From Henricia sp. BOLD:AAB3569 (Eukaryota > Echinodermata > Asteroidea > Spinulosida > Echinasteridae): 64,000 nucleotides of DNA. Each line of letters opens with the position of its first letter. Position 1 is the first letter of the stretch. The stretch is from positions 434,001-498,000 of the forward strand of contig JBBELK010000450.1 in assembly GCA_037783545.1 (NCBI GenBank). The letters run 5' to 3'. The position numbers were made by a program, and so were the translations under genes. Below, piece by piece: positions 15,390-58,100 of this stretch. A model generated the notes under the pieces. The model saw nothing but the letters and a program-made list of their open reading frames with translations. It did not search any database and was not told the DNA's origin.

Positions 15390-15393
15390 TTAA

Positions 15394-16338: not shown

Positions 16339-16342
16339 TTAA

Positions 16343-18505: not shown

Positions 18506-18565
18506 ACAAAAAAGTGTCATGCTATCTTGTGATTGCAGTTTGCGCGAACGTTGCCCCTTGGTAGT

Positions 18566-18687: not shown

Positions 18688-19137
18688 GGTTGTGTCCTTT
18701 GATGAAATCATTCTGGTACCAACTCTGAATAATATCCATACATACGTTTGATCATTAAGAAGATGAAAGAGCTACATCGGCACTGAAAGAGTGTGAATTA
18801 AAGAAACAATAAACCCGATGCCGTAGGGCGTGGCGCCTTTCGCAAAAGCAAAACAAATTTCTAAAACACATTGTCTTCAGTTTCCACTTTTGCCGGAGTG
18901 ATTCGGGAGTGGCAGTCAGTGCGGAGATGCTTCATTTCCCTCCGAGATGAAAACAATGGCGCTTTGAATTACACTGCTTTAATTAGTGGTTCCGGCTTAA
19001 AGAATGTGCGGTAGTCCGTCTTGCCGGATTATATGTCATTGCTAAAATGAAATTTCCCGTGTAACAATAGCAGGTGATAACTGAATGGTCATTCTTAATA
19101 TTGGCTTCTTCCTAAGGAGCTTAATTCGCAGTTTCTC
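18688..19137. other. Intergenic, nothing recognised
   Basis: No exon-like stretch or paired termini seen between MITE H and element B copy 3. Confidence 0.4.
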
Positions 19138-19141
19138 TTAA

Positions 19142-20073
19142 AGAGGAAGAATCCCCCTTGACGAAAATCCAGCATTTAGGCTTTTTTCGATAGTCCAAAC
19201 ATCCCTCTTGCCGACGTGGATTTTTATTATTTTTTAATTGTCGGTTTTAAGTGGATAAATTGCAAGCAAAAGTGTGCTTTTCGAAAATGAGATTTTCGCG
19301 ATTTCTGAAACGCTCATTAGGTATTCATGATATGCGCGTGACCCCGTGACGCAATCCTGAGAAAAAGAAGTCAACACGATTGTTAGCTCCATACGTTTAC
19401 ACGCAAAAACTTGGAAAACCGTCTCTGTCAGATGGTGTTTTTTGAAGAATTTTGTTGTTCCAAAAAGCCAGAGATATGCCCAGTAGCTGCGTGGTTGTAT
19501 GTTTTACCAGACACTATGAAAAAAAAAGAGCAGAAAGATTTTCTTTTCTATTACCAAGAGAGAGAAAAATGAGTCGCTCATTCTATAACTTGTACGGCCG
19601 ATGTTCAAACACGTGGGAACTACGCCCGCAGGGGACCGTATCATGCTGTACACAGACCGCTGTGAATGCCGTTCGTTCCGTGACAAAACCACCCGTCGCA
19701 ATCATGCACCAGTATTTAATTCAAAAGAGCTTCATTGTGAGCCACAATTTCATCGTTTTTTTTCACAAAACAGGTAATAGTAGATTGTTGTCATATTACA
19801 TGTATTTTGAATTACAAGGACAAAACAGGCATGATAAACATTCACTTCGTGTATTTTCCATTCAATACTGCACAGACCGTTTTGTATGTTTCTCAGGATG
19901 ACGTCAAAACCCTGTTGATAAACAAGCCAAGTGACCTCGAGCGTTTCAGAATTTGGGTGAAGAGGGTCGGAACTGCTTTACGTTTTAAGCAAAAGCCTGT
20001 AGATTTTTTGTGAAAAACAGAATAAACAGAAAAACTAAAAAATTGTTTAGGGGGGTGGGGGGATTCTAGCTGT
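19142..20073 (+). mobile_element. TTAA element family B, copy 3
   Basis: Left TTAA (19,138-19,141) then AGAGGAAGAATCCCCC; the right end GGATTCTAGCTGT is followed by CTAA, one change from TTAA. A frame from about 19,452 contains [15 protein letters not shown]. Small deletions separate it from copy 1. Confidence 0.7.
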
Positions 20074-28052: not shown

Positions 28053-28192
28053 ATGGCTGACAGTGCCGACAGCCGACGGAAAGGAACTGCCAAGGTTCGG
28101 ACTTTGCAGGAGATTGAGAAGGCGGTCCGAGCAAGATGGGAAGAAGAGAAGATGTTTGAACAGGATGCTCCGAGTGGGGTCAAAGGTCGTGG
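28053..28192 (+). CDS. LARS1: LARS1 exon 1
   Basis: Start ATG in [15 protein letters not shown], residues 1-46 plus two bases. GTAKV aligns with the conserved N-terminus of animal LARS1. Donor is CGTGG|GTAAGG; joined to exon 2 it gives [16 protein letters not shown]. Confidence 0.9.
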
Positions 28193-31100
28193 GTAAGGTC
28201 ATGTCACAGATTGGTATATTAGAATAACGGACGTTGTAGATTGAGAAGGTTGTCCGAGCAGGATGGGATCAAGAAAAGATGGTTGAAGAGGATGCTCCGA
28301 GTGGGGTCAAAGGTCATTGGTAAGGTCATGTCATAAAATTCACCCATTCTTTCTAATAATTTCATGTATGACATGATAATACCTCAAATTTGGCAAGAAA
28401 ACATACATGATTTCAGCCATGGACATTTTTTTTTTAACATTAAAGATTTAATTTCGTGCTCCATGGACTTGATGCGTGGAGTCTCAACTGGTAAACATGT
28501 ACGGAGGTTTTTCCTAGAATTGTTCACATTGTTATGTAAAGGCTAGTTTCCATACATGACCTGCTCTGGAAAAGGTGGTATAAGTCGCGCAGGCTAGGTC
28601 GAGTTTTCGCAACCATAAGTAGACATCTGTGGCGGATCCATGCTCATTCTAATACCAAAACACACTGGAAATTCCAGACGGAGCACGGACATTCCAGGCG
28701 GTATCTGGGGACTGCCAGGAATTTCCATTGTGTTTTTGTAATTTAATGAACGTGTTAAGTAAGGTTGTTTTTGCCCTTACCCGACGTATTTATTAACATT
28801 GTATACTCAGTGCTTTCCCCGAGACACTATGAACAACTTCATAGCTTGCTCGGGTGGGACTCGAACCCACGACCTCCTGCAAACAAGGCAGATGTCTTAA
28901 CCACTCGACCACCGAGCTAGCCGGTGTTGAATGGCTGGTTCGAATCATTTCGCAACGGGGATTGCAATTAGTCAGAAATTGATTATAACTTGCGTCGGGG
29001 AAATTGAATGTTAAAAGTAAGGTTGTTTTTGCCCTTACCCAACAAAGTTATTAACACTGTACACTCATCGCTTTCCCAAGACACTACGAAAAACTTCATA
29101 GCGTGCTCGGGTGGGACTCGAACCCACGACCTCCTGCATACAAGGCAGACATCTTAACCACTCGACCACTAAGCCAGCCGGTGTTGAATTGTACTTATAG
29201 TTGTGAAAACTCGACCTAGTCTGCGCGACTTATACTACCTTTTTCCAGAGCGGGTCTCATATTCTCTCAGTCAAACATCCTGGCACTTTTGTAGCCCATT
29301 GTAAACTGTTTTTGTTTGATTTACAGGAAAGATAAATACATGGTGTGCTTTCCCTATCCCTACATGAATGGACGTCTCCACCTTGGACATACATTTACAC
29401 TGTCAAAGTGTGAGGTAAATTCACAGCATTTATGTGAAATAAAACCATTATGTATTTAAGAAAGTTACACTTATGCAAAGAAAAAAATTGTATATTTAAA
29501 GGTAGAACACATGATTGGTATCTCTATTAAAAATCAGAAACATTCACAGATTTACACGTAACTTACACAATATAAACATTGATGACCGTAGAAAACTTCC
29601 TCTGAAATGGTTTTGTCTGAAGTGCTATAGTCTTTGAGAAATGAGTAAAATATGAGACGAAAATTCACTTCGTCTCCAAAACCACTTTGCCCTGGACCAC
29701 TTTTCCCTGATCCACTTTTCCCTGATCCACTTTTCCCTGATCCACTTTTCCCTGATCCACTTTTCCCTGATCCACTTCGCCCTGATCCGCCTCGCCCCCC
29801 AAAAACCACTTCACCCTCCAAAACTACTTCGCCTAAATGCCACTTTGCCCAAAAATCAGGGCAGAAGTGTACACAGTTTTTGACTGTTTTATCAGAAGTT
29901 AGATGAAGTACGGAGCTGACTTTTACTCAGGTTGGTTTTAATCATGTATATCTTAAAGGAGATGAAACTATTTGTAACGGTTTGCCAATCATGTGTTCTA
30001 CGGTACCTTCAATAGCAAGAATCATATTTTCAGTCTCTTCAACACAAAAAATTGTAGTTGTCCTCAATTGCCCTGTCCTCATCACAGGATGATGAATTTG
30101 TTTTCTTCAGTAAACTGAATGTGTTTACTGTAACCATATTAATTCCAGTGTGGACTGTCCAGGAACATTAGTTGTCAGATATTATTTTCAAGTCCAGTAG
30201 TCCCTTTTACTGGCCAGCCTTCAACCAGAAAACTGACGAGACCATTTTAATAGAGTCCAATAGTCCAGTTCAGATGACAAAAAAATCTCCTGAGTGCATC
30301 ATGTTCATACATGTATCGGTAAATTTTTACACTGTAACATGTAGTCAATGTGCAAATAGCTGTGACATTTAAAGGGACACACCGGCTTTGTGGGGTTATT
30401 TTGGGCTCGAAATAGACCTATACATTATTCTGAAGCGCTTTCCAGAGTAAATTAGATATATCCTGAAAAGACGGCGTCAAATTTGGCTGTTTTTGAGCAT
30501 TTTTCAAAAAATTTAAGGTCCGTGACTTTTCGGAACCAGATTTTGGTCCTGAAAAGTCCTACGAACACTCACTATGTACATACCGTATTTTCCAATTTGT
30601 ACACAAATCTGCCAACAGATTTCATAAAAAGGGTTTCTGGGTGTTGATATGGACGAGAGAATATCTCAGATTTTCGTGTCTTCGCTTTGCGTTCGCGTTC
30701 GTGGCAATAAATAACATCCGAAGAAAAAAACAGCATAGACCTATTGAGGGCGCTAAAGACACCAAAACGTTGCGTTCGAGTGGCTTCCTCGAGTCAGCGC
30801 TGACCTCAGGGATTATGCATTGTGGGATGAGTCAGGGAAAACAAGGAATCGAGGTTAAACACGTGTCGACCCATATCGAACGCCACCTATTTATTTACAA
30901 ACACATGATACATAATACATCGCGACAGCTGGTAAAGTGTTTAGCCCAACATTTGTCTCTTTTGTTAATTTTAAACATTTCTAGTTAATTACGTGACATT
31001 TTGATATTATTTTTTGACAAGGACCATCGAAAAATTATTGTCAAGGATGCTAGATTATGTAAACAGTAAGCCGGTGTGTTCCTTTAACCACAAAAATATT

Positions 31101-34100
31101 GTAGAGTTTTTCTATGCCAAAATGTACAAACTGTATACAGCTCTTCCTAACATTGTCCTTATTGTTTCCCTTTGTCAGTTTGCAGTGGGTTATGAACGTA
31201 TGAAAGGCAAACGATGTCTATATCCCTTTGCTTTCCACTGTACTGGCATGCCAATTAAGGTAAGATTGTAGTTCTGTTGTCACAATACAGTCACCAAAAG
31301 TCACTTAATCCCAATCACAAGGGCTGTCCGTATTTGACTGGGGAAAACTAAGGCCAAACAAAATAAATGGTGTGTTTACGGTAACCCGACCTACCTGGAA
31401 TTTGAGGCCAAATTACCGACCTCAAACTTTTTATTGCCAATTTTCAAGTTGATAATTTTAAATGAGCACTATTTGCAATAATTTACAACGAACATAACAT
31501 TTTCTGCACTTGTACATGAACATGGTTAATAGTGTTAATAGTGAGTTTCAAACATTGCAAAACAACACGCAAATGTATGAACTGAAATGTAAAAAAAAAT
31601 GCAAAAATTAAATTATTTTCCTACTGTACCTACGTACCTTGATTTTTTTTAGGCCGTTACCGTAAACGCTCTATTTATTTTGTTTGGCCTAACCAATACA
31701 ATGGGTACTTTTCTCATTTTAAGTCCAATGCGGACAGCCTAGGATGTTTTCCTCTCAGTAACTTTTCCTAAATCCAGCGGTTACTTTTCCTGGCCAACTG
31801 CTGCCCAGAAAAAATGACCAGGGAACTTTTCCCGATACGATAAGTCCAGTGCGGACGCAGCGAATCGGTAAAAGCGCTCTGGAAGCGTTCGTTTTGGGCC
31901 GTGAAGGTCAAACTGCGAAAGGACACTGCGCATGCTCTCCTACGGTCTCGGTAAAATTTTCCTGTGTCCAAATAGGGACAGCAGTAGAATATAGCAATGC
32001 GGGACCATTTAGACAGGGTACTGTGTGTCTGGGGGATTCTCCATAACCCGCCTCTTGTGGTATCCCCTGAAAACTGTTTCCTTGTCACCTGCCTTGATTG
32101 CGATGTCATTACATTTATGTAGATTAATATATTTTTTTATTTTTATAAATTAACTTGATTTTGTAACGTCTTTTTGGGTGGTGTTGTGGTCTGTGAAGCG
32201 CTTTGAGGTATTTTACGTAAGGCGCTGTTATAAATATCTATATTATTATTATTATTATTGATCATCGTCTCGGTAAAACCTCCCGAAAAAGTCCAATGCA
32301 GAAACTAAGTCACAAGCTATTCCAGTCATTTCTGACCAATCCAATTTTTTATAGCTTGCAACTTTATAATCATTTTTGTAATTTCTTTCATTCCAAGTTT
32401 GATTGTTTCGTTTCAGTGGTGACAAGGCTCGATACCAGATGTTGTGTTTATAACTTTATAATGTGAATTCTTGAATTGCGATGCTTGCAGATTTTAAAAA
32501 AGTAAAACTTATTTGACTGCAGGCATGCGCTGACAAACTGAAACGAGAGATGGAAGATTTTGGCTGTCCGCCAAGATTCCCACAAGGAGTTGACGAGGGT
32601 GAAGACGAAATTGATCAAGAAAGTGATGTCATCATCAAGGACAAGTCCAAAGGGAAGAAGGTGGGGCTTAGTATGCATAAATTTGAATAAATTAATGTTA
32701 AGTATGGCATTGAGAATGAAGTGATGTCATCATTAAGGACAAGGTTAAAGGAAAAAGGTGTTTGTATGCATAAATTTAAATAAATTAATAATATGGCATT
32801 GAGTATGGCATTGACAGACCTGCCAACTAGTACGATTTGGCCATATTTCGTATGGGAAATCTTTGAAAATACGTTTTCCCCTACAAAAATACGGGTTTTG
32901 ACCGTCTTGATACGCCCTAAAAAAATCCTGGTTTAAGCGTGCGGTAGCGAGTGTAAACTAGGCTTGATAGTAAAAATGGCTGCGAGTCAAGACTATGCAG
33001 GACATGACGTCACGAGGCTCTACACTACATCGTGCTCTCATAAGCTAGGATGTCCATAATTGGTACACGGGGTGTACAATACTGCTGTAGGACCGGGCGT
33101 ATTAGCCAATCTAGCTTTGCAAACAAAAGCACTAGGCATTAGGATAGATGAATGGCGGTTTATACGCAGACCGTGCCGTCCATGCTGCTGGCAATAATTT
33201 TGTGATCCTTGCTTGAGCGTGAAGTGAATATTTAAATATGGCTTCGACCAAAAAAGATAACAGGAAGCAATCGTACAAAGCAGAATACTTCATACATCCA
33301 TCACAGAAAGGAGAAAATCATGTACGATGTACATTGTGTGGTTCGGATTTTAGCATCGTGCACAATGGTTCGTATGACGGTTTTCTTATGAAGAATACAA
33401 CTCTTGGAGTTTCAGAATACAATTTCGTGATTCCAAAGGTTGGCAGGTCTGCATTGAGGGTGAAGATGAGATTGGTAAAGAAGTGATGTCATCAAGGACA
33501 AGGCCAAAGGGAAGAAGGTGGGGCTTATAAATGCATAGATTTGAATAAATTAAATAAATTGTAATTATGGCATTCATGGAAGAGTTTGGCTTTCCAGCAA
33601 GATTCTTACGGGGTGTTGGTAGAGTTGATAATGCATAAATTTGAATAAATAAATGTGAAATTACAGTGAACGATTTCCCCTGTATCGCATCGCAAAATGC
33701 GACGCGTTTTTGACAATCTGCGATGCCACTTTTCAAAGTGCATCGCAGTTTTTCACTTGATTTAGCGATGCAATTTGCGACACAATTTTTTCAAAAATCT
33801 GGTCCTTATCCTTGCACTTCCAGATTAGTTTTGGTAATGTTAGTGAAAAATTAAAAAAATGAAAATGGAAAAATTACCAGAATAACGTACCGCGACGGCT
33901 TAAGCGGGTCTCCCACTGTGCGATTTTTGTTACGAATTTCCTACTATTGGGTACGATTGTGTGTAGAGTCTATAGGCAGTCTCCGATAATCGTACCAATT
34001 CGTAGGAAATTTGTGGCAAAAATCGCACAGCGGGAGGCCTGCTTTACGGCAGGGTTCTCCCGATCCCCACGCACACACGTGCGTATATCGACCCGATACG

Positions 34101-37100
34101 CTGAAATTCCGGTCCGCCGACACGCATAAAAAATTGCGAACGCCGCAAGTAGCTCGTTATGCATGTAAACATTGATGCGGTCCTGGCGCTATTGTGTTCC
34201 AAACCGTGTCGTTGATAACCACCATATTCACGAATAATGGCGCACAAAGTTATCGATAAAGGAGATCTCTTAGTGAAAGCTGGAATTAAGAATCCTTGGC
34301 GATTTTCTTGGCTAGAAACGGAAGTGCAGGGAGACCTAATTCTAATCGATACTTTCTTGTGAAAATTAACAAACCGGGTTAAGCCTACTGCAAGTACATG
34401 TACACGTGGTGCGATTTATTCAATGGGAACAATTTGTCAGAGTTGTCCCGGTTTTCCTGGCCATAGGTGCAGAAAAATCAATCCCATTTCCCTGCAGCAT
34501 AAGCAGCAGTATTCCTTTTATATTCCCTAAGTCGGTAGAAATTGCTTAAAACTTTGATTTATGTTGAAATTTCAGCATTAAATTGGTACATTTTCAGGGG
34601 GGAAAAACGCGACGCGAACCACACTGTCCGGACAGCTGGTGGGGAAAAAACTTGTGCAACTGGTAATCTGCCTGTAATGCCTATGGAGATGGGTACCAGT
34701 TTATGCATATTGTTTTCCTACTATGCTTCCAGATCCACGTGCATATAAGCCACCTTTTTCTTTTGTATAAAAATGATGGCGTTTGGGAGAAAAGGGGAGT
34801 AGATACACTGTACCTAATGCAAGAGTTGGATAGAGGAGGTGGATCGAAAAAGGGGATTTGTGTTGGTATTTTTTTCTCTCTCAATGATATAAATTTAAGA
34901 AATATTTTGCTTAAATGATACAGGGGCATTTTTTACATTTTACATGTACCGGTACTGTACATGTATACATCCACTGCACTCGGTAAAGTTTGCGCGCGAA
35001 GTGCCCTGGGCTGGCGAAGTCATCTGAATTTTTTGTGGAATTTTTGTTCCCTCCAATCTCACCCCTGGTCTAGTCACTTTACTGTAGGTCTCGTATTCGG
35101 GTCATATTTTCATCAAATTTAAAATGTGAATATTAAGAACATTTTTATGGTCTTTAAAATAATTTATATGCAGCCTTTAATCATTCATTTTGAATTTGCT
35201 ATACAAAAATACTGGATTGCTAAACAAAATTTTAAAATTGCTACGCAAAAAAAATGTGCATAGCAAATCTGCTATCCAATATTTCAGAACGAAATCGTTC
35301 ACTGAATTAGCATGGTCTTTAAGCAGGAGCTGTACAGAGTTTTCTGGTACCTCTAAACTCTCGCCCATTCAGTTTGTGGAAAAATTGTATTCGACTTCAA
35401 ATTAGTAGATTGTACCGTTAAAACTTGGCATTTGTTATTGAACTTTTTAGGTAATAAATTATTTTTCTTCTGCAAATAGAGCAAGCTTGTGGCCAAGACT
35501 GGGCCAGCCAAGTATCAATGGGAAATCATGCAATCCCTGGGTATTTCTGAGGAGGAGATCCCCCGGTTTGCTGAGACAGATCATTGGCTGGAATACTTCC
35601 CACCATTGGCCAAGCAGGACCTGAGGGGCATGGGACTCAAGGTGGGTGCTCCTCCTATATGTTGTCCGTTATTGTGTAAGCCATGTTAATTCTAGTAGCG
35701 TTTACTTTGATTGTAAATTAGGGATTAAAAGTAGGTTTGGCCAATCTTAAACACACGTTTAAAGCCAGCTAGGTGTCCTGGGCGCTGATAATGCCCGAGC
35801 CGGCAGGCGAGGGCATTATCAGCGCCCTGGATCCCTAGCTCGTTTTAAACAGGTTGTTTAAGATTGGCCAAACCTACTTTTAATCCCATTCATAAATACC
35901 TTTTCGTGTAAATTTTGGTAAAACTCACCAAAATTAGCTCGTCGTTGTGTCATGTTTTGCATTCACTTTCCTACACCCACAGTATCAACACCGTACCGCG
36001 TTCGTACAACTGCTAGCTGTGCGTGATGTTGTTTTTGTCCGATCGCGCGCACGCATGCACACGACCGGATATAAGTGCACAATTTGCTTTCGGGCGCGTG
36101 CAGTTTCTTTGTGCATGTGCGTGTTCCGTGTACGCGCTGACTAAGGCACAAACGCGGGACAGCCGGCCGGGCATTATCACTATTTTTTATCGCTAATTTA
36201 AGACTGCCCACGTGGCGTGCTCTCAGCCAATAGGGATGCGTAAACTGTCTAAGGTATTTATGAATTTTTGATTAACAATAAGTGTTACGTTATTAATGCT
36301 TTTTCTGCATCATACACTTTGGAAATAATAAGTAAAATTGACTTGTTCTAAGAAGATAGGCTAACAGATAATAATAATAATAATAATAATTTATATTGCA
36401 AGAACTCTGGATGCGGCAATAGGGCGACAATTCGGGAAGCCTTTCCCCGCGGACCACCGAAATTTCGGGAAGAATCACTCAAATTGACACCAAATTTCTC
36501 TACCCGGTTACAGACCTAAGAGAGACCTAATAAAAATGGTTCTCGATTTAAAAAAAATGGTTTTTGACCTTAAAAAATGGTTTTTAAACTCAAAAATTTG
36601 GTGTCGCCCTATTGAGCGTGTCGCCCTAATATAGCTTTTTTACACACAAATTGTCGCCCTATCCTAGCAAACAGAGTTTTTGCGCAAATTCCATAAAATA
36701 AATTATGTTCAAATGCGCATAACAATACAGTGTACAGTGTACGTACACTACAACTAAAAAATTTGTTAAAATAAAAAGATACTAATTACTAATTAACACA
36801 TAAAAAGTACGATAACATAAATCGATCGATCAATCATTTATACATATGCGCTGAGGAACAAGTGTGTTTTAAATTTACGCTTAAAATCAGATGAGAGCAT
36901 ACCTCTCTAAAGCAAATACCTCTCTGTACAAATTTCACATAACTTACATTATAAGACGGACCAACAGGTGTCCACCGTGTTATGTATCATACATGGAGTT
37001 GGCAGATCTGTTACAATTTAGGGGCTTGTTACATGTATCTTCTTAGAACAAATTAAAGTTACTTCTAATTTCAGAGAAGATAAAAAAGTGTTTGTAGAAA

Positions 37101-40100
37101 AAATTAAGTTGATTGGGCTTGATTGCCAGAATAAACTCTGAGAAGGACCCAAAATACAGTCAACAAACAAGTGTTGCTTCTTTCTATTAAAGGTACACAC
37201 CGGCTTTGTTGGGCTATTATGGGCTCGAAATTGACCCATACAAGATTCTGAATGCCCTTCTGAAATAAACTGAACATATCCTGAAATAAAAAACAGAGGT
37301 GTTCCGAAAAGTCACATGGTCTTGCGAGTTAGTTTTGTGTCCAGCCGCATGAAAGATTCTTACTCAAACTGCACCAAATTCAACTCTGATTTTCCCCCAA
37401 TATTTATAAGTAATTGACAAAAGATAGACTATTTATACAGGTATGAAACAAAGTGAAACATAAGTATGAAAATTTGAACATAAATGTTTGTTTCGAGAGT
37501 CCGGAGAAGGGGAGAACGAGCGCGTGCTACGGCAGGCTAGCCTGAGTGCACACACTGCCGCCGGTTGGTGTGCTCCGGTTTACATGTACGTTTGTGAAGA
37601 AAAAACATGATGCCAACTCCTCCGAAGAAAACGGAAATTCCTATTCATTTGTCCGGGCTGTTCAGTGAAATCGTAAGCAGAAAATTTGAGATATCATGTG
37701 TAGGAAAAGAGCGAATCGTTTGTGACAAAGTCGTGAGGCTTGCGCGTACATGTACATGTAGTTGCAACAGCTGGTAAAGCGTATAACACGTCTTTTGACC
37801 GTTTTGGTTAATTTTGCACTTCTTTAGTAAATTACAGGATATTTTGATGATCTTTTTTCACAACGACCATTACAAAAATATTGTCAATGCTGCTACATCA
37901 CTAAATCATGTAAACAGTATAGGCCGGTGTGTACCTTTAAGTCCATATTGCAACAAAAATATTTAAATATAGAGTGTCTTTCCCCCTACAGACCGACTGG
38001 AGACGTAGTTTCATCACCACCGACGCCAACCCATATTACGATTCCTTCGTCCGCTGGCACTTCCTAACCTTAAAGAAGTTAGGCAAGGTCAAGTTTGGCA
38101 AACGCAACACGATATACTCCCCTAAAGATGGCCAGCCGTGTATGGACCATGACCGGCAGTCGGGGGAAGGCGTGGGGCCCCAGGAATACACCCTCATTAA
38201 AATGAAGGCATTGAAACCGTATCCGGAAAGATTACAGTAAGTTAGATTGTGCTCTGTTGGCTAGTTCCTGCATTAAGCCTAGCGTACATCGACCTTGCAA
38301 CTGGAAGCAACTAGTGGCAACTGGTGTTTCTGGCAACTGGGAGCAACTGGGAGCAACTGATCAGTTGCTCAAAAAGGTTGATGTACGCGCACTTGCAACT
38401 ACCGGCAACTTAAAAAATCCCAGTTGCCGCGAGTTGCTCATGTTCTACTTTCTGGCAACTAGTTGTACCCAGTTGCGTCCATGTACGCGTACTTGCAACT
38501 AGTTGCTGCCAGTTTCTCGCATTGCATCAGATCACGTGCGCGCACATCGGCAGCAACTGCAAGCACAGTTGCTTTCAGTTGCAAGGGCAATGCACTCTGC
38601 GCTTTACGGAGTTGCTGTGTCGATGTGCGCGCTCTGGAAATGTAGATATAGCTGGATGCTCCCAGTTGCCTCTAGTTGCGGAACTAATCTGTTTCTGTCG
38701 ATGTGTGCGCTACGCACACATCGACAGCAACTGATCAGTTGAGTTGCTTCCAGTTGCAATGTCGATGTACGCTAGGCGTTAGAGGTCTCGATTTTGAACC
38801 CCAATGAGGACCATATGTCATTTCTGTGGTGATTGGACACCATACCAAATATTGCGATTAATATTTTCAGTTTAAAGTGGATGCAGCATTCTGTTTGAGA
38901 CAATATTTTCTCATACTTTGGATATTTTTGTGAATTATTTTTAATGCACTTGGTATCATTTTATTTTTGCGGATGTGTAACAGTGAATAATTTGCTGCTT
39001 TGCTGGTGCAGTTTCTCATGTTTTTTGTTTTATTTTCGTGGAAGCGATTCAATTTACGAAATTTGCCAAAATAAACACCTCGCTAAAATTTCCAATTGTA
39101 CAGTACAGTGAAACCTCGTTAACCAGTTAACGCTGGGATTATTAACGCTGGGAGGAAGGAAAACAACTGAACTCATTAAACGGACACACCAGCTTTGTTG
39201 GGTTATTTTGGGCTCAAAATAGACCCATATATTATTCTGAAGCGCTATCCAGAGTAAATTAGATATATACTGAAAAGATGCCGACAAATTTGGCTGTTTT
39301 TGAGCATTTAAAAAAAATTCAAGGTCACGTGATTTTTCGGAACCAAATTCGGGTTCCGAAAAGTCACGTGGTCTTGTGAGTTAGTTGTATTTCCAGCCGT
39401 ATAAAAGTTTCTTACTGCAAAACTGCACCAAATTTAACTCTGATTTTCCCCCAATATTAATAAGTAATTGACAAAAGAGAGACTATTTATACAGGTATGA
39501 AACAAAGTTAAACATAAGTATGAAAATTTGAACATAATTGTTTGTTTCGAGAGTCCGGAGAACGGGAGCGAGCGCGTGCTATGGCAGGCTACTGTGGAGT
39601 GTAGGATATTTGCCCCGCGCAGCACGGCAAATAGCCCGAGTGCACACACGGCCGGGTGTGTTGCTCCGGTGTACGTAGAAAAAACATGATGCCAACTCCT
39701 CAAAAGAAAACGGAAATTCCTATTCGGTCGTCCGGGCTGTCCAGTGAAATCGTGAGCAGAAAATTGGAGATATCCTGAGCAGAAGAAGAGCGAATCGTTT
39801 GTGACAAAGTCGTGAGGCTCGCGCGTAGTTGACCGTTTTTGTTAATTTTGCACTTCTTTAGTAAATTACGGGATATTTTGATGATCTTTTTTTACTACGA
39901 CCATCAAAAAAGTATTGTCAATGCTGCTACATCACTAAATCATGTAAACAGTAGGCCAGTGTGTAACTTTAACCATGTGCGGTAAACAATTGTTATGTCA
40001 ATACACCGTCATTGTACACCCCAATGCCTCCGGCGTCAAGTGGTTAATAAGAGCGCTGCTAACACAATATTCTGCTTGTAACGAGGAAAAGTTTAGGTCC

Positions 40101-46100: not shown

Positions 46101-49100
46101 TTGTCCAATCTGAATCGTGCCATTGCATAAGGTATGGTGGAAGCAAAATACTGAACTGTAACTCCCCTTAATTGAGTGCAATAAAGTTGACATCATTGTT
46201 TTTTTGTGTTTTTCATTCTGACCCCACACTCCTTTGTTGCATTCCTGTTCCGTGAAGCTTGCCATCATGGACTCCGTTGAGCTCTATTCTTGTGAGTGAT
46301 ATGTTCAGCTAAAATTTGATATATAATTTTCCTACAATAAATCTAATTTCATAATAAATATCTACAAATGTCTTACTGGTGACAGAACTTTTTTGGTAAA
46401 GTGTACCGGTATATTAAAATGTAGAAGTTTCTTTTTTTTCCTGATATTTAAAGGTACTCTGAGGACACAAAGAAGAATTTCCTAGCAACATTTGACTGGC
46501 TCCACGAACATGCATGCTCCAGATCATATGGACTTGGTATAAGCTCAGTTTTCTGATAAGAATGCTTACATTAGGGATTAAAAGTAGGTTTGGCCAATCT
46601 TAAACATACAGTTAAAACCAGCTAGGGGTCCTGGGTGCTGATAATGCCCAAGCCGCCAGGGTTGTTTAAGATTGGCCAAACCTACTTTTAATCCCATTAA
46701 TAAATACCTTTTCGTGTAAATCGGTAAAACTCACCAAAATTAGCTCGTCGTTTTGCATTCATTTTCCTACACCTACACCCACACCGCGTTCGTACAACTG
46801 CTAGCTGTGCGTCATGTTGTCTTTGTTCGATCGCGCGCCTTACGTGTAACGCAGGCGTGTTGTGCGTGCGTGCGTGCGCGTGCGCACACACGACCGTATA
46901 TAAGTGCACAATTTGCTTTCGGGCGGAGTTGATTTTTATAAATACCGGGCTTCAGAGAACGGTTACCCTCAGCATATATACTAATTTATATGGCCTCGTA
47001 AATCGAGCAACACCTTTGCCTGTTAATATTACCCAAAACATGACGAGAACGATTCAATAAACTGATGAGATCTTCTAAATGCAAGTGTGACATTTTGAAA
47101 TTTATATTGAAGAATTATTGAAATTTCGCTCATAATATAATTTGAATTTATAAGGTACAGGTTCTACAGATGGGTAAAACCAAAAGCTACCTTTTCCAGA
47201 AAGAACCTGGTCAAAAAGACTTGAAATGTAATCGTAAGAATTTAAAAATGCCTTGGTGTCCCCACTTACGTCGTTAAACAATTTTCTCGAATATTATCAA
47301 ATCTATGACACCAAGAAATGTCTAAATGTTTGGAAATTGTTTCAAATATCCTACACTATTCAGGAATTGCACGGAAATTTCTTCAACATATTTTGTTAAC
47401 TTGAAAAGGTCATTTTTACCAATGCATCAAAATGTCACACTTTGGCCCCCATATTTATGGAATGACCCAGTTCCTAGTTACCGAATTGGTCAGAAAAATT
47501 TCCCAAGTACTGGGTTAACTGCCTTTGTATCGATATTTTCTTCTAAGGTACTAAGATGCCATGGGACGAGCAATACTTGATTGAATCGCTGTCCGATTCC
47601 ACTATCTACATGGCTTACTACACGGTTGCTCATCTACTGCAGGGAGGAGTGTTTGATGGGTCTGGAACCAGTCCAATGGGAATCACGTACGTCAATTTTG
47701 AGATGTGTGGTGGCAGCAAACAAACTGGTCCTTTCCATTGTTTGCATCATTTTGAGCATTTGCACTTTAGCTCAAACGTGATGTTAACAATGGAAAATGA
47801 CTGGTTTGTTTGCTGCTACATGTACCACAAAGTGTCCAATTCTTTTCCAATTGTAATTTAATTGAGCAAAGAGTTTCTTTGAATGGGGAATCGAACCTGT
47901 GGCTCGAACAAGTGCTTAATTAATGTCATTTGTCAACTCTTATAATATACTGAAATGCAAAAGAAACTTACCACTTGTTTAAAATGTAATGAAATTGTAA
48001 CAGTTCAAAATAAAACAAACCAACAATTGCTAATTGAAACATTGTCATTTTATTGATGACATGTCAAGTTTTTGACCAAGATACACCATCTCATCAGTTT
48101 GTTCTACAGTAAAGAACAAAAGAGGGTGCAATGTCAGTCCCCTCTCAATAGAGTGTGTGGCCACCATTGATTTGGATACAGGCAGTGCATCGTCGTCGCA
48201 TACTGCCTACCAATCGTGGCATGTTGCTTGAAATGCCCATTTTGCACTGGCTTTTTTAAAGCCAACATTAAGACATCAGGTGCAGCTCATTACAATCATC
48301 CCATACCCCTTGGCTAATCACTGACAGTCAAAACAGCTGTGCCACGAAGTGACCATTGAAGGTTCAAGTGACCTTCAGACACCGTTTGGTCGACAGTGAG
48401 GACACTATTGTCCACAAATAAGTTCACACATTACTACACGCAGTGTTATTGTTGCTATTTAAAGGTTTAAAAGGTGTTAAGTTTCTTTTGTGTTTCAGTA
48501 TATGTGACCCGCTCTAAAAAAAGGTATAATAAATTTGCGGCAAATCCACGTTCATCAAAATACAAAAACACAATGAAAATTCCTGGCGGTGCCCAGTTAC
48601 CGCCTGGGATGTCCGTGTTCAGCCAGGAATTTCCAGTGTGTTTTTGTATTTTAATGAGCATGGATCTGCCACAGATTTCTTCTTATAGTCGCAAAAACTC
48701 GACCTAGCCTGTGTGACTTATTCTACCTTTTTCCAGAGCGGGTCACATATGTAATTTTGTTCAAATTTTAGGACATGATTTTACACATCTCCATTGCTTC
48801 TGTAAAAATGTATTCTGTAGAAACCTGAATGATAATTGTTTTTAGCAATTCTACCTGGGTCATTTGATCACACTTAACTGGGACATCCAAGCCAGTTTGA
48901 TCCAGATACTACCATCAAGTTTGGCCCAGGTCAACTCTCAACCCAACCACTATAATTCCCTTTTGGAGCGCACCAGCTGACCACCCCCCTCACCCCCCCT
49001 CCCCCTGATATCTGGGATTACATTTTCTTCTCCAAATCCCCCTTTCCCAAATCCACCTCAATCCCAATTTGACCCAGGTCAACCCACATAGTCGCGCATT

Positions 49101-52100
49101 ACGTACGCACTGTGGACGTTTCTTTGTATTCGTGCACTTAAGAGAATTGGTCGGAAAATCGTTGTTTTCTCAAAATTCTTCCCTCATCCACCCCAATTTT
49201 TTCCTTATCCATGTTTCTAAACTTTACTCCTAAACCCTAACCTTTTTTTTTTAACCCTCCACCCCCACCCTAACCCCTTTTCCCAAGTTTGGACAACATG
49301 ACTGTGGACTTGAGCGAACGAGTGCAAGTCCACAATCCGTCACTTTTCCCCGCAAATTGTGGACTTGAATGGGTTTCGAGTCCACACCACGTACGCAAGG
49401 TGCGTACATCTAATTTGACACAAGTCAACTCAAACTCTCAACCCAACTACTATAATTCTCTTTTAGAGCAGATCAGCTGACTCCAGACATCAGGGACCAC
49501 ATTCCCTGTATGTCCGCCATAACTTGGGGCCATCCAGTACCATGAACTGTGCGTTTTGTGTTGATGATCAGCTGTTACATTATGCACATCTTTTGTTGAA
49601 AGCTTGCAAAGCCTGTGTACTTTGAAGGGGGCGCATTGTGCGCTGCTCAATTTAACAACACAGAATGCACACTTCATGGCACTAGATGGCCTCTAGTTAT
49701 GGTGGACGTGCAGGTAAGGAGTCCTTAGTTACTGGATTCGTCTATAATTCTCTTTCAGAGCGAATCAGTTAACCCCCGATGTATGGGACTACATCTTCTT
49801 CTCCAAATCCCCCTTCCCCAAATCCACCAAAATCCCGCGAACGTCCCTCGACAAACTCCGCCACGAGTTCCAGTACTGGTACGGCGTCGACCTGCGCGTC
49901 TCAGGCAAAGATCTGGTACCCAACCACCTCACATACTTCCTCTATAACCACTGCGCCGTGTGGCCTAAGGAACCAGAGCGCTGGCCAGCAGCCGTCCGAA
50001 CCAACGGACATCTGTTGCTAAACAATGAGAAGATGTCCAAATCGACGGGGAACTTTCTGACTCTGTCTGAGGCTCTGCAAAAGTACTCGGCAGACGGTGA
50101 GTCACCGAAATATTTTGCCAAACTTAAGAACTGCATTCTTCAAGTTTAACTTAATAATGTGTGCAACCTTCGTGTGTTGAATTTACACGGAAAATATAAT
50201 TAACGACAAAGACATGCTAAAGCTTTTCAACTTGCATTCATCAGAGCAAAACGCAAAAATGGCGTGGGTGACGCTATCGATAATAGGCGGGAATGACGTG
50301 TTCCGAATGCTGTGTGCTAATTGTTAAGCTGACAACAGCAGGGAGCATGATACTGCGCATGCGCAATTAGACTGCATGTAGCATGTGTACAAATTCTTTC
50401 TGACGACATAACACAGATTTTCTGAAGTGAATGTACATGTATGTACATGTAGCTTCGAGCATGTGCAGATGCATGATACTGCATGCTCTGGCCAGTACAG
50501 TGAACTGCTGTTCACTGTATTGTTTCAAGCACTCGGGGTGATTAAGCAAGAGTTGTCCTATAACATTCGGGCTGTGTGGCAGCTTTGTGAGCGTTCTTGC
50601 AGACACACAAATTGACATGAGTTATACTCATTCATTTAAATCTATCGCACAAAGGCTGGAATACTTCTGTGTCTAGCCACAATGTGTGTGCTTCACGTTT
50701 AAATACATGTGCACTTTGATTGTGGAGCCACTGTAAAAATGGCCTTTCGAATTTGTCTAAGTAACATTTGTGCTTTATAATAATATTGACCCTAACGGTA
50801 CCAAATCCTCCAATAGACTCTTTGCACCGCCGGCCATGACAGGGGGCAGGTTTTCATATTGAAATGATGTGACAATAGATCCACAAAGTGCCTAATGATG
50901 CATGGTGGCATTGTGACTACGGTACACCCAATATGGCCGCCCATGCAAAGGGTCTATTCGTGCACAATTTTGTGTAGGACCAAGAAGTTAAGCCTAATTA
51001 GTTATTATGTTTAATATAATGCAAATTTCATGAATATGTTCTTGTGAACTACACATTGCAGAATGAGCCCATGGACTGATGGAACTCAATAGACCGATCC
51101 AGTAAGCTCCGCCCATTTTGGAATTGACCAATCCCAGCCTCAGGTTCAGGTAACCAAAAAGTGGATCCCCATTTTGGTTACCTGAGTCCTCAAACTTTTG
51201 TGCACAGAGCTACGGCAAATGCAGCACGAGTGACGCAAGAACACCATAAACATCATTTTTATCAGCGCAGAGGACCCTAGCCGGATTCAAACGGATTGTA
51301 TAAAACTATCCTAACCTACTTTTAATCCCTTCATAAATGTGTTTTTGTGTAAACGGGAAAAACTCACTAAAATTAGCTTGTCGTTTTGCTATGTTGTGCA
51401 TTCACTGCATTCTAGATGTGTGTCGAGATGTTTTTGTTTGACCGCGCGCGTTACGTGTATTGCAGGCGTGTTGTACGTGCACGCACACGACCAGATACTT
51501 ACATGTAAGTGCACATTTTGCTTTCGAGCGTGCAGTTTCTGTGTGCGTGTTTCAATACGCGCTGACCAGGGTGTGGACACTGATGCACGGCACCGCCACG
51601 CGACTCTACTGCACACGTGCCTCACATGTGTTTTATGTTGCTAGGCAATTTCTAAATGGGCGGGGCTTACTGGATCGGTCTATTATCGGCCCGTAGGGTA
51701 AAATTGCCTGAAGCTTACATCTGTATTCCACCTAAACATACCTTCTCCTTCAGGCGTACGTCTGGCGCTAGCCGATGCTGGCAACCATGCAGTAGAGTAT
51801 GCCAACTTCATTTAATCCTTAGCTACAACATACAAGCTTAGCATATACACACATGTGCTGCGTCAACTGCAGAAACTGGCATCTCTGTAAGGCGCGAGGT
51901 CAAAATAGACGCTGTCAAATTAGTGGCCTCGCGTTTTAGCTCTAGCAGAGTTTTTATCGAAGGCAAAAATCAAAATGGGTCAAAAAAGAAAGAATTCCTC
52001 TTCAAATTGTTTCTGTTGACAGAGAACCGTGTGCCAGTTTGAAGGGAACCGTTTCCAATTGCTGGGTTGGTCGATGATTGACAGGTTTACAACTAGCCGC

Positions 52101-55100
52101 CTGCACGAAGGGAACAAAAGGCTGCTACTGGCCGACAACTTCAAAGGGAGCCGCCCGACCCTCCAGGCATGAATGGGTTGTGGTTAAACACCCTTGTTCG
52201 GGTGGTCACGTGATAAACAGTGGCAGCGAGTCAGCCAGGAGTAGTCACACAATGGCCCGTAATTCGATAAGCTCTCTATTGTTCAGTGAACGTGGGCTGG
52301 GTTAAACATTGCCCTATATCTATCGTCTGGCCAGACAAGTTGAATCGTTTGCTTGTTAATTCACTGAAAACCGTGCAACGGTGTATCGTTTATGTACCGT
52401 TTCCTGGTTTACAGACCGTTTCTATTTTGACCTCGCGCCTAATTTTTAACTCTTCTTTTTCAGGCATGCGTCTGGCCCTAGCCGATGCTGGTGACCACCC
52501 AGTAGAAGATGCCAACTTCATTGAATCCTTAGCAGACGCTGGTATCCTGCGCCTCTACACATCCCTTGAATGGACCAGGGAAATGCTGGCTGAAGAGAGC
52601 GCCCTTCGGAGGGGAAACATGGACAGCTTTCATGACCGGGTCTTCATTAGTGAAATGCATCATGGGATACAGGAGACTGAGAAAGCCTACGATAGGATGA
52701 TGTACAAAGAGGCTCTTAGAACTGGGTTCTTCGAGTTTCAGGTTTGTTAAGGTCGGATTTGCAATGTCTCAAATTATAATCAATTATTTACCCGGAAAAA
52801 AATCTTACTCGTATAGAAGAAAGAAGTGGTTCCAACTGTCCAATGCAATGATTCCACCCAAAATGATATCTTTTTATAATTAAAATTTTATAAAAAATGC
52901 ATGTGCAATTTTTTTACAAAGGCATCCTCATATGAACAAACTAGTCCCCTAACTACCATAGTATTATGACTCCATTTTCTGTGCAGTATAGCCAAGGAAC
53001 CAGCCTAAATAGGACACTGGCTTTGCACAATTTATTGAAAGCATGGACACAGTTTCCAATCCAGTAATCTATCTTTAACTTTTCATTTCGGTGCACCACT
53101 CACAATAGCTTAAAAAATATCTGCTTCCGGCCGGAAAGCTGCTGCCTGTGGCAGACCTTGGAAAACAATTTAAAGGCAGTATACATGATTGGTATCTCGA
53201 AGAATCAGAAATGTTCACAGATTTACACATAACTTACACGATATAAACATGATGACGGCAGAAAACTTTCCCTGAACTGGTTTTTGAGAAATGAGCAAAA
53301 CAATTATTTTTCGTCTCGCAAGACGTAAATTCAATTCGCCCCAAAACCATTTCGCCCGAGTGCCATTTCGCCCCCAAACCACTTCGCCCCCAAACCACTT
53401 CGCCCCAAATCACTTCGTCCAAACACTACCTCGCCCAAATGCCACTTCGCCCCAAAACCACTTCTTGCACAGGCCGTGGTTCAGGGCGAAGTGGTTCAGA
53501 GCAGTGGTTTTGGGGCGAAATGACTGCAAACCCTTTTTTGACTGTTTTCTCAAAAGTTAGACGAAGTACGGAGCTGGTTTTTGCTCAGGTTGGTTTTAAT
53601 CATGCATATCTTCAATCACAGTTTACCAATCATGTATACTAACTTTAAGTAAAAGAGTTGACTGTTGCGGTCTAATGTCTCTTTTTATCCAAGTCCTGTT
53701 CGCTTTCTGGCAACTCTGGCTTATGGTGTGTCTACACAAAATACTAAAATCTTAAATGCTGTGTTGTACGAGCTGTGATGTTGTTACTCTTTTGCAGGCA
53801 TCGCGAGACCGTTACCGTGAGCGAGCCACAGACGGAATGCATCACGATCTCATCATAAAATTCATTGAGTGCCAAGCTCTACTATTAGCACCCATCTGCC
53901 CTCATCTATGTGAACACATCTGGGGAATGCTAGGCCATGTAAGTATGTTGTTACGCCCCAACTATGCCAACTTATTGTCCAGACTTGACACTTAGTTGGA
54001 GCTGGCCCAATTGTTTCTTGGAGAATCCTAACTAATTTTTGGGAAAGCCTTAACTCTGCTCCTAGCTCCCATCAGCCCACATCTATGGGCGTGTTTGTTT
54101 CATGACAGATCCGAATCCAGATCCCGATCTGTTTTACCGCGCAGAAACAAACGAAACCGCTCTCAACTCGGATCTCAAATCACGTGAACTGCAATTTATT
54201 TACCAAATTTGTCAAATTTCTGTTCCAAATTTCTCCCACGACATTCGTCGTAAATAAACAAGCATTCTAAATTTGTTTGTATCGTGTGTTGCCTCTGAAA
54301 ACTGAAACAACACGGTTCTACTCACACAAAATCTCCACGATGTTTACGTCGCCATTTTGGATCTAGCGCTGAACCATCTCTCGAGAATGATTCCACAGAT
54401 CACAGATCTCGATCAGGATGTGCGCGAAGTGAACGAGTTCACTTTGGATCTGCGCAGATCTGCATCTGGATCCGTCCAAAACGCCCTATGTGAACACATC
54501 TGGGACATGCTCGGCCATGTGAGTATGCGTGTTAACATGGCACTTTTAGACAGCGCGAGACTGTAATCGTGAGCGCATAGTGAAAGGTGATGTGTTTGAT
54601 TAATCCCTGTGTGCATAAGCTGCACGGGACTGCATACTCCATAGGGTGTTGAGAAGGATTAAGGAATGATATTACTGAGCCCAATGACCAGGGGTAATAA
54701 TGTAAACCGCATTGAGACTGTATGAAATGCGTTTTTGTTTTACAATTAGACAATATTATTATTGGAAAATAGAATTAAGTAATGACAAAGTCATGCTAAA
54801 GCTTTTTGACTTGAACTCATCAGAGCAAAACGCAAAAAATGACGTGGGTACGCTATCGATGTAAATATAAGGCTGAAGAGCGGTGATGACGTGATCAGAA
54901 TGCTACGCGCTGATTGGTCAGCTGGCAACAGCAGGGACTATGCTACTTCGCATGCGGCGTTAGACTACATGTAGCGTGTGAACAAATTCTTTCTGGCGAC
55001 ATAACACAGGCTTAGTGAAGTGGATATACATAGCTTCGCGCATGTGGAGATGCATGATACTGCGTGCTCTGGCCAGTACCATGAACTGCTGTTCGCTGTA

Positions 55101-58100
55101 TTGTTCCGAGCACTCGGGGTGATCAAGCAAGTGTTGTCCTTTAGCAGATGTGCATTAGATCGGGCTGTGTTGCAGCTTTGCGAGCATTATTGCGGGAAGC
55201 AGGCACGTTGCTGCGTATGGAGGATGGGACATGCTGTTTAATGCGATCCTCCAGTCTTTGAGACGTAACGAGCTTCACATCGGCACCGAGCAGCAGTTCA
55301 CGGTGCTGGCCAGAGTACTCCATGCTGTTGCCAGCTGACCAATCAGCGCGTAGCATTCTGATCACGTCATAACCGCTCTTCAGCCTTATATTTACACCGA
55401 TAGCGTACCCACGCCATTTCTTGCGGTTTGCTCTGATAAGTGCAAGTCGAAAAGCTTTAGCATGTCTTTGTCGTTACTAAACCTATTAAAAAACCCATAT
55501 TGGGAGCTTTGTATTTTACAATTATCACAGTAATTAATGCAATATCTGGTATAGTGCCTAATCACCATTGAAATAAACAAATTTGGATTTTACACTTATA
55601 TCAGATCGTAATAGACCGATCCAGTAAGCTCCGCCCATTTAGAAATTGCCTAGCAACATTAAACACATGTGAGGCACCTGTGCAGTAGAGTCGCGTGGCC
55701 GCGCCGTGCGTCAGCGTCCGCGCCCTGAAACACGCACACAGAAACTGCACGCTCGAAAGCAAAATGTGCACTTAAGTATCCGGTCGTGTGCGTGCACGTA
55801 CAACACGCCTGCAATACGCGTAACGCGCGCGATCGAACAAAAACATCTCGACACACATCTAGAACGCAGTGAATGCACAACATTCATTGTAGCAAAACGA
55901 CAAGCTAATTTTGGTGAGTTTTTCCCGTTTACACAAAAACACATTTATGAAGGGATTAAAAGTAGGTTAGGATATTCTTATACAACCCGTTTTAAACCGG
56001 CTAGTGTCCTCTGCGCTGATAAAAATGATGTTTATGGTGTTTTTTGCGTCACTCGTGCTGCATTTCGCCGTAGCTCTGTGCACAAAATTTTGAGGACTCG
56101 GGTAACCAAAATGGAGATCTACTTTTTGGTTACCTCAACCTGAGGCTGTGATTGGTCAATTCCAAAATGGGCGGAGCTTACTGGATCGGTCTATTGGCTG
56201 AAAAACAAAATTGTATAAGCCGTGCTTAAATGTTGGCATCTCTCACATAGTAAGCTAAAGAACTTATTCTTAAGAAAGGATGTGGTCAAAATCAAATCTA
56301 AATTTCGTCATCTTGACCCGCAGAAAGAGTCCACTATGAAGGCCCAGTGGCCGGTAAAGTGGATGTCAAACTCCTGAGGTAATCGGAGTCCCTGATGGAT
56401 TCAGCTCATGATTTGCATCTTCGTCTCGAATCAAAAATAAATTTCTTCATCTTGGCTTGCAGAAAGAGTCCATTATGAAGGCCAAATGGCCAGTGGCCGG
56501 TAAAGTGGACGTCAAACTCCTGAGGTCATCAGAATATCTGATGGATTCAGCTCATGACTTCCGTCTTCGTCTCAAGAACTTCATGATTCCTCCCAAGGGA
56601 AAGGTCAGTCAAGGTTTTCTTTCTGACTTGGTCACAGCTAGAATTTGAAGAATTTAATTGTTAGAATTCAAAGGTTTGATGATTCCAAGATACCTGCATT
56701 TACCATTTCCAAATGTTGTCTCACAATGTAGCAAAAGCCAAAATGCAAGAATTACTCGTCGCATTTCTTACACTACCCATCAAAACTTTGTAAACTCCTT
56801 GAAAGTTTCAGGTTTTTGAGAAGAAAATTTTTTGTGAATGTTAATTTTGTGAAAGCAAATGTAGGTGTATTCTAACAAAAAGCAATATATACATGTTAAT
56901 TTTAGTGCCATCTTCGGCTCCAGCAGTGGGCTTTATCAACAAATTGGAGAGCATGCAAAAAGAAACATCTAAACTTGATGTTCATCAAAGATTTCCCCCT
57001 TTTTTTACCTATGACAGCTACACACAATCTCTGCATCCTGATTGTCAGTTTATCCAAACATTCAGTGGAAATACGCATCTTTTAAGACTCTCCAAAGGTT
57101 TTCTTGGCTGGTTGGGCATTTCTTTCTGACCTTACGATCCAACTCCTCCCAGAGCAGCTCAATGGGATTGAGATCAGGTGACTGGGCAGGCCATTCCATG
57201 ATGGACAGCACTCCAGATGCTGACTGCTTTCTCTCCTGATACCCCTTACACCTCCGTTTGCTTTAATAGCTTGGTTTATTATGAATATTAAACAAAATAA
57301 TACTTCTTTCTCAAAAACCTCAAACTTGTTTCTAACGTTTTGATTGGTAGTGTATGCAAGAATTATATTCCCAACTTATAAATTAATGCTGAGGTTTTGG
57401 TCAATCATGGTTAGCCAGTTTAACTTCTAGTGTCGTTTGTGCTTTGATATGTGGGTACTTTTACTCCAATCTTATTAATGTAATTTTGTTGTAAGCACTG
57501 CTAGCAATGCCTCCACACACATTCCTTTCCTTTTTTGGATATTCGAGTTTAAAGGCAGTATACATCATTGGTAATCTCGAAAATCAGAAATGTTCACAGA
57601 TTTACACCTAACTTACACAATATAAACATAATGACCGTAGAAAACTTCCCCTGAAATGGTTTTGTCTGAAGTGCTATAGTCTTTGAGAAATGAGAAAAAC
57701 AATTAGTTTTCGTCTTATGAGACGAAAATTCAATTCGCCCCAAAACCATTTCGCCCAAGTGCCATTTCGCCCCAAACCACTTCGCCCGAGTGCCATTTCG
57801 CCCCAAATTACTTCGTCCAAACACTATATCGCCCAAATGCCACTTCGCCCTAAAACCACTTTGTGCACAGGCCGTGGTTCAGGGCGAAATGGTTCAGGGC
57901 GAAGTGGTTTTGGGACGAAATTACTGCAAACCCTTTTTTGACTGTTTGGTTTTTATCATGCATATCTTCAATCACACAGGGGGATACAACTATTTGTAAC
58001 AGTTTACCAATCATGTATACTATCTTTAACAGTGTACACTCCATCTTGTAACCCAACAGAAGGGCGCAGCTCCACCACCGAAGCCTACCCACGGCACCTT

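What the first reader, a model, noticed from the sequence alone, without database searches (positions are those of the whole stretch)
28053..56603. Exon echoes: six LARS1 exons have decayed tandem partial copies beside them
Exons 1, 4, 13, 14, 15 and 16 each have one to three diverged partial copies in the adjacent intron, usually with a splice site and intron bases, so the units were DNA-level tandem duplications. One duplicated exon in a gene is ordinary; six independent cases in one housekeeping gene, all decaying, suggest a recurrent local process such as repeated replication slippage or repair-linked duplication of short segments centred on exons. The unit near exons 1 and 16 is about 130-140 bp. 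Copies lie downstream of exons 1, 4 and 15 and upstream of 13, 14 and 16. Divergence looks too high for allelic variation.
Basis: partly seen in the sequence, partly recalled or inferred. Interest (0 to 1): 0.8.

Follow-up and report, generated by a model that had tools for sequence, protein, structure and literature searches.

The report
Tandem partial exon copies in introns
Six exons of this animal's leucine-tRNA ligase gene have old, decaying partial copies beside them, left by a local DNA-duplication process that also marks other genes of the same genome and resembles the "mirages" already described in lancelets.

Summary
A 19-exon LARS1 model (28053-62741) and a local search give partial copies of exons 1, 4, 13, 14, 15 and 16, all direct, none inverted. 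A second, allele-like copy (contig C97) has exons 1, 4, 11, 13 and 15 echoed, so the four shared ones are not assembly noise.

They are tandem duplications: a copied 5' exon part lies upstream and a 3' part downstream in 26 of 27 exon rows. Echoes differ from their exons at about 11% of sites, against 6.4% between alleles at fourfold sites. Units are also lost: exon 16 on C97 looks like a recombinant of the window's two units.

LARS1 is not special: clathrin heavy chain has 9 of 26 exons echoed, a CCT gene 3 of 4, POLR2B 0 of 21; in ten genes 20 of 105. Random intron segments (310 of 1600) have local direct copies nearly as often as exons (20 of 85). Only units of 90-170 bp are exon-enriched (17 of 24 clusters, 7.2 expected), a range chosen after seeing LARS1; survivorship may give part of it.

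Lancelet "mirages" (PMC3087553) are the same kind; the mitochondrial code here is not a lancelet's and fits an echinoderm. New member of a known kind.

The parts
28053..28192 (+). LARS1 exon 1 (ATG at 28053, donor GTAAGG)
28228..28333 (+). echo of exon 1: 3' part + donor + intron bases, period 130, 86% id; two such copies on C97
32523..32660 (+). LARS1 exon 4
32709..32807 (+). echo of exon 4 (+99), 3' part + donor-side intron, 81% id
33456..33654 (+). further echo(es) of exon 4 (+861; +1026), 73% overall, 86% in the 66-column exon part
49002..49065 (+). echo of exon 13 (exon positions 15-78), 771 bp upstream, 87.5% id, shared with C97
48913..49502 (+). weaker repeats that chain the exon 13 echo to the exon (48913-48981/49407-49481; 49450-49502/49742-49794, the latter crossing the acceptor)
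49759..50096 (+). LARS1 exon 13
51742..51823 (+). echo of exon 14 (12 intron bases + 70 bp of exon), 85% id, inside about 920 bp absent from C97
52464..52741 (+). LARS1 exon 14
53798..53938 (+). LARS1 exon 15
54054..54087 (+). first piece of the exon 15 echo (exon positions 80-113); one 78-bp block on C97 (38810-38887)
54486..54534 (+). second piece of the exon 15 echo (exon 3' end + donor + intron), 88% id
56290..56427 (+). echo of exon 16: intron end, acceptor and 104 bp of exon with a 7-bp deletion and a stop in the exon's frame; abuts the exon unit head-to-tail
56463..56603 (+). LARS1 exon 16 (its unit: 56429-56573)
46454..46536 (+). LARS1 exon 11, not echoed in the window but echoed on C97 (31135-31196)

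Best explanation
The echoes are remnants of many independent small tandem duplications of DNA (units on exons mostly about 95-160 bp), typically spanning one exon-intron boundary. A duplicated 5' exon part leaves its spare copy in the upstream intron, a 3' part in the downstream intron; the exon keeps one intact boundary, so the gene tolerates it. The spare copy then decays by point mutation, insertion and deletion, and arrays expand or contract by unequal recombination. The process acts in introns as well and in other genes, with hot and cold genes; it is the phenomenon called 'mirages' in lancelets. Shown here: tandem geometry, divergence, allele differences, a recombinant-looking contraction, other genes. 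Inferred: that the duplications arise in break repair or replication (for example fill-in of staggered breaks), and that splicing is normal.
For: Every exon copy listed is direct; 0 of 85 exons have an inverted local copy against 317 of 1600 intron segments. Side rule 26 of 27 exon rows, both LARS1 alleles included; the alignment comes within 12 bp of an exon boundary in 22 of 27 and runs 10 bp or more into the intron in 20 of 27 (my count). E16 abuts head-to-tail, E1 with about 21 unaligned bases between; CLTC and CCTe have arrays of 2.9, 3.7 and 6.0 copies over exons. Echo against exon 46/421 sites, alleles at fourfold sites 29/451, echo sites between alleles 10/279 against 3/283 for the same exon parts, not tested for significance. 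E16 on C97: five of six informative intron columns like the window echo (one neither), then 17 of 18 exon columns like the window exon (one neither; seven of the 18 belong to one 7-bp gap). E1: two units in the window, three on C97. E14 and E11 echoes sit in about 920 and 650 bp present on one allele only. Other genes: 20 of 105 exons in ten genes, unequal among genes (permutation p=0.0044).
Against: Echoes of E13, E14, E15 and one of E4 lie 580-861 bp away with only 33-70 bp of exon matched; that these were also head-to-tail is inferred from the side rule and the E13 chain of repeats, not seen. Five of 27 rows do not reach a boundary (E13 on both alleles, CLTC 435734 and 436952, CCTa2). Pooled divergence is nearly equal in exon parts and intron parts of the units (187/1962 against 154/1478), not the twofold difference that simple decay of one against two copies predicts, though alignment ends favour similar intron bases; in the window's LARS1 echoes alone it is 48/425 against 39/199 (my sum). 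The E16 pattern could in part be plain exon conservation plus change in the window's acceptor. No RNA was available.
Confidence: 0.85

Rival explanations
1. Exon-targeted duplication: exons (for instance because a nucleosome sits on them, or through transcription) are true hot spots for duplication of roughly one nucleosome length.
For: Base units of 90-170 bp: 17 of 24 clusters overlap exons, 7.2 expected, p=1.6e-5; without LARS1 14 of 21, 6.5 expected, p=4e-4; other size classes show none (0 of 15, 0 of 4, 2 of 10, 2 of 6). Units on exons 93-179 bp in 16 of 19, off exons 22-498 bp in an ungapped scan that sees short units. Bases in tandem repeats (offset 60-300): exon 9.6%, unique intron 5.1%, transposon-like 6.5%; at 90% identity 4.1, 1.6 and 2.6% (where three CLTC exon copies were still counted as exon).
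Against: Size range chosen from LARS1; CLTC supplies 9 of the 17; without both genes 5 of 11 against 2.5, p=0.07; youngest class (id 0.93 or more) 5 of 6 against 2.6, p=0.054. Whole-set tests on younger copies are weak: id 90% or more, 6 against 3.9, p=0.15, 4 against 3.1, p=0.37; by base p=0.25. The gapped search also finds off-exon units of 90-160 bp. Survivorship of the exon copy predicts some excess. No nucleosome data.
Confidence: 0.25
2. Survivorship only: duplications of this size fall anywhere, and exon-spanning ones stay recognisable longer because one copy is conserved and cannot be deleted.
For: Direct local copies nearly as common for intron segments (310 of 1600) as for exons (20 of 85); enrichment is not significant for copies 90% identical or more. 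E14 and E11 echoes are missing from one allele within larger indels. In the ungapped simulation a pair that mutates on both sides is seen less often than one that mutates on one side at 14% per copy (40-57% against 97-100% for units of 110-150 bp).
Against: In the gapped simulation point mutation hardly favours exons up to 14% per copy (88-98% against 95-98%), only at 18% (48-68% against 95-100%). Pooled intron parts are not twice as diverged. A twofold advantage would not comfortably give 17 of 24 (my estimate, not computed by a call).
Confidence: 0.45
3. Functional spare exons (mutually exclusive or alternative exons).
For: Some echoes keep a splice site and an open frame (E13 piece; E15 piece, ORF read).
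Against: Copies are partial with at most one boundary; E16 and E14 echoes carry stops, E16 also a 7-bp deletion; three of seven LARS1 echoes are missing from one allele; echo sites change more than exon sites.
Confidence: 0.03
4. Assembly or amplification artefact.
For: The assembly has oddities (mitochondrial trimer contig).
Against: Window copies differ from the exon by 8-14% of aligned sites; four echoes (E1, E4, E13, E15) recur on a separately assembled allele 6.4% diverged at fourfold sites.
Confidence: 0.02

Closest known systems
'Mirages' of lancelets (tandem duplications of exon-intron boundaries; globin genes PMC3087553, PGBD5 PMC3902484; Adh3 and troponin C reported there by citation)
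   Same: Tandem, boundary-spanning, either boundary; BflGb6 units 150-160 bp, BflGb9 157 bp, PGBD5 60 and 108 bp; unit number differs between haplotypes (6 and 3 in BflGb6); 81-100% identity among BflGb6 units; signs of concerted evolution. Passages read.
   Different: Not a lancelet by its mitochondrial code (fits the echinoderm/flatworm table), and lancelet-type GFP was not found. Here several exons per gene are affected and the LARS1 copies are old and degraded.
Tandem exon duplication (recalled; papers on it seen only as a search listing)
   Same: Local direct copies of exon sequence within a gene.
   Different: Here exon fragments with at most one splice site, decaying, not whole usable exons.
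Small tandem duplications from break repair (CST/Pol alpha-primase fill-in, PMC8355091; SPO11 double cuts, preprint PMC12918824; passages read)
   Same: Local duplication of tens to hundreds of bases; ectopic SPO11 double-cut inserts had medians of 95 and 67 bp in two mouse mutants.
   Different: Mechanism not testable here; those studies concern mouse cells and mutants, and the first deals mostly with duplications under 100 bp.

Membership tests
Mirage (tandem duplication spanning an exon-intron boundary) | tandem direct copies spanning an exon-intron boundary | tested here: met
   direct; side rule 26 of 27 exon rows; 20 of 27 run 10 bp or more into the intron
Mirage (tandem duplication spanning an exon-intron boundary) | both 5' and 3' boundaries can be affected | tested here: met
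   in the window LARS1, 5' parts for E13, E14, E16 and 3' parts for E1, E4, E15
Mirage (tandem duplication spanning an exon-intron boundary) | unit number varies between haplotypes, unequal exchange | tested here: met
   E1 two against three units; E16 single, recombinant-looking unit on C97 (C97 taken as the other allele)
Mirage (tandem duplication spanning an exon-intron boundary) | mRNA spliced normally in spite of the copies | not testable with these tools
   no RNA data; the CDS is open on both alleles
Mirage (tandem duplication spanning an exon-intron boundary) | somatic instability (reported for Adh3) | not testable with these tools
   needs reads from several tissues; known to me only through PMC3087553
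Functional tandem exon duplication | copy has both splice sites and an intact frame | tested here: not met
   partial copies, stops in the E14 and E16 echoes

The most novel reading that the evidence does not exclude
Some echinoderms and lancelets share a germline process that duplicates roughly one nucleosome length of DNA in tandem, preferring exons, so that about one exon in five carries fresh or fossil copies of its own splice boundary; alleles constantly gain, swap and lose splice sites this way, as in exon 16, whose acceptor on one allele may descend from the former echo.
Probability: 0.2. Interest if true: 0.75.

Novelty: new member of a known kind. Interest (0 to 1): 0.5.

Why it matters
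Boundary duplication is a proposed raw material for new introns (PMC3087553 argues this for lancelet globins) and could shift splice sites. A genome with such copies of several ages, on two divergent alleles, lets birth, splice-site turnover and loss be measured directly. It also warns annotators that exon-like matches inside introns in such genomes can be debris.

Tried and rejected
LARS1-specific cause: rejected, other genes show it. First guess that the species is a lancelet: GFP family and mNeonGreen searches found nothing (an empty answer proves little) and the mitochondrial code speaks against it; the tRNA order looks like the sea-star inversion, which I recall and did not test.

A missing class of short units in my first spectrum was an artefact: simulated units of 75 bp or less were almost never seen by self-BLAST (0-2%); the ungapped scan replaced it. 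One search's difference between exon and intron unit lengths (medians 130 and 154) should be read with that in mind, and other self-BLAST counts may miss offsets under about 90 bp.

Detection bias from point mutation as the main cause of exon excess: small up to 14% per copy, larger from 10% up, so not settled. Twofold divergence of intron parts: not found in the pool.

XPO1 gave no match and was dropped. C97, CCTa2 and MYO_C155 (second alleles) were left out of the 105-exon counts. CCTc exon 2009991-2010239 has a weak copy counted but not in the 20 of 105; CCTa2's 25-bp match is not counted either. Three CLTC match rows that are themselves copies (440648, 440774, 454023) were dropped from exon counts, not. 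The 20 of 105 pools searches with flanks of 5, 4 and 1.5 kb. Exons of the CCT, POLR1B/3B and myosin genes are incompletely mapped (family or protein matches only). The intron control includes transposon-like repeats.

Literature: searches found no paper; others (20 of 46 listed; 15 of 15; 2 of 2; 15 of 865; 15 of 43) listed two papers on lancelet mirages and none that I recognised as such copies in echinoderms; of the rest I saw titles and the beginnings of abstracts. One search was for mechanism. Canestro 2002 (PMC117041) is not held.
Full report
WHAT IS THERE. The window is G000:C450:434001-498000 of a 740.7-Mb, 2104-contig assembly. Family TIGR00395 and the PDB agree on the gene. Contig C97 (79 kb, of which 60 kb were fetched) carries a largely collinear second copy with the same 19 exons open and matches to further exons: 61 of 3114 CDS differences, 29 of 451 at fourfold sites. 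I treat it as the other allele; other genes also came up in pairs of contigs.

THE ECHOES. Each exon was searched against 5 kb on both sides. On C97 five of 19 do: 1 (twice), 4, 11, 13, 15. None is inverted. In one search (1.5 kb, four gene copies) 0 of 85 exons but 317 of 1600 intron segments had an inverted local copy.

TANDEM ORIGIN. If a segment spanning one exon boundary is duplicated head-to-tail, a 5' exon part must end up upstream and a 3' part downstream, in the same orientation. That holds in 26 of 27 exon rows over the genes fetched and both LARS1 alleles (the best direct copy per exon); the exception, CLTC 435734-435868, has a 146-bp offset larger than its 135-bp matched exon. The alignment comes within 12 bp of a boundary in 22 of 27 rows. 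E16 abuts its copy and E1 lies about 21 bases from its own (periods 139-146 and 130). E13-E15 and one E4 copy lie 580-861 bp off; E13 has intermediate repeats that chain copy to exon.

DECAY AND TURNOVER. Window echoes differ from their exons at 46 of 421 aligned sites; the shared echoes differ between alleles at 10 of 279 sites, the same exon parts at 3 of 283. The duplications thus look older than the allele split. E16 is single on C97: along the unit C97 matches the window echo at five of six informative intron columns (one neither), and after the exon start the window exon at 17 of 18 (one neither; seven of these are one 7-bp gap). Exon conservation could explain the second half alone, but the acceptor region fits a contraction in which the exon took over the outer unit's splice acceptor; this reading is inferred. 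E1 has two units in the window and three on C97, and by eye the window echo joins the start of one C97 unit to the end of the other, with exceptions at single sites. The E14 echo lies in about 920 bp absent from C97, the E11 echo of C97 in about 650 bp absent from the window.

NOT ONLY LARS1. CLTC on C1058 shows copies already in the protein search. With DNA search: LARS1 6 of 19, CLTC 9 of 26, POLR2B 0 of 21, POLR1B/3B 0 of 6, CCTa 0 of 6, CCTb 1 of 5, CCTc 0 of 6, CCTd 1 of 8, CCTe 3 of 4, a myosin 0 of 4: 20 of 105, unequal among genes (p=0.0044). Arrays over exons reach 2.9 copies of 126 bp and 3.7 of 120 bp in CLTC, 6.0 of 122 bp in CCTe.

ARE EXONS PREFERRED? Random intron segments of exon length had a local direct copy in 310 of 1600 cases, exons in 20 of 85 (both LARS1 alleles, CLTC, POLR2B). 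Rotating the repeat map against exons: 19 of 105 exons touched against 11.2 (p=0.003) for offsets 60-300; 6 against 3.9 (p=0.15) for copies 90% identical or more; by base 1567 against 1330 (p=0.25); offsets up to 1500: 21 against 15.8 (p=0.07); LARS1 alone 6 against 2.65 (p=0.04) for offsets up to 1500. Bases in tandem repeats: exon 9.6%, unique intron 5.1%, transposon-like 6.5%. A second, ungapped scan: 19 against 12.7 (p=0.024), and 4 against 3.1 (p=0.37) for 90% or more. Splitting by base unit, only 90-170 bp is enriched: 17 of 24 clusters against 7.2 (p=1.6e-5), 14 of 21 against 6.5 without LARS1 (p=4e-4), 5 of 11 against 2.5 without LARS1 and CLTC (p=0.07); other sizes 0 of 15, 0 of 4, 2 of 10, 2 of 6. 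So there is a modest, size-specific exon excess whose range I chose after seeing the data. A conserved exon cannot be deleted, which should raise survival of its pair up to about twofold (inference).

WHOSE GENOME. COX1 on a 16.2-kb mitochondrial unit keeps what I recall as conserved residues when AAA reads Asn, ATA Ile and AGR Ser, the code of echinoderms and flatworms, not of lancelets; the tRNA order resembles sea stars as I recall it.

KNOWN KIND. [quoted passage not shown] lancelet PGBD5 has 60- and 108-bp ones (PMC3902484, passages). What is seen here works like these. Mechanism candidates in print: fill-in at staggered breaks by CST/Pol alpha-primase (PMC8355091, passages) and SPO11 double cuts (preprint PMC12918824, passages). 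I favour break repair with fill-in, unproven here.

Noticed in passing
window 28747-29189 and 61045-61554; L004 1869-2559: Tandem units of 217-258 bp each holding a tRNA-Thr(TGT)-like gene lie in LARS1 introns; two tRNA hits in the window, three on C97 at the first site.
   Followed up: partly
window 7972-9537, minus strand: Polyketide/fatty-acid synthase-like coding stretch: ketoacyl synthase domains and the start of an acyltransferase domain (Pfam).
   Followed up: partly
window 23045-23627 and 24582-25351: Two arrays of about 206-208-bp units that by eye look like reverse complements of each other and flank about 1 kb, as in a transposon with terminal tandem repeats.
   Followed up: no
window 13571-20168, 59679-60629: A roughly 900-bp element recurs in both orientations here and on C97.
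   Followed up: no
G000:C955 and C2104: Mitochondrial COX1 appears three times on C955 at a period of 16,221 bp and once on C2104, as in a concatenated mitochondrial contig.
   Followed up: partly
C97 55322-55581 (L008): A LARS1 match beyond the window (about residues 1063-1108) also has a direct copy, period 151, 77%.
   Followed up: partly
   Followed up: no
C219:930205-930510 and C155:1941948-1942434 (L033, L035): An intron array in a myosin gene with units of about 77/154 bp seems to differ in length between two contigs.
   Followed up: no
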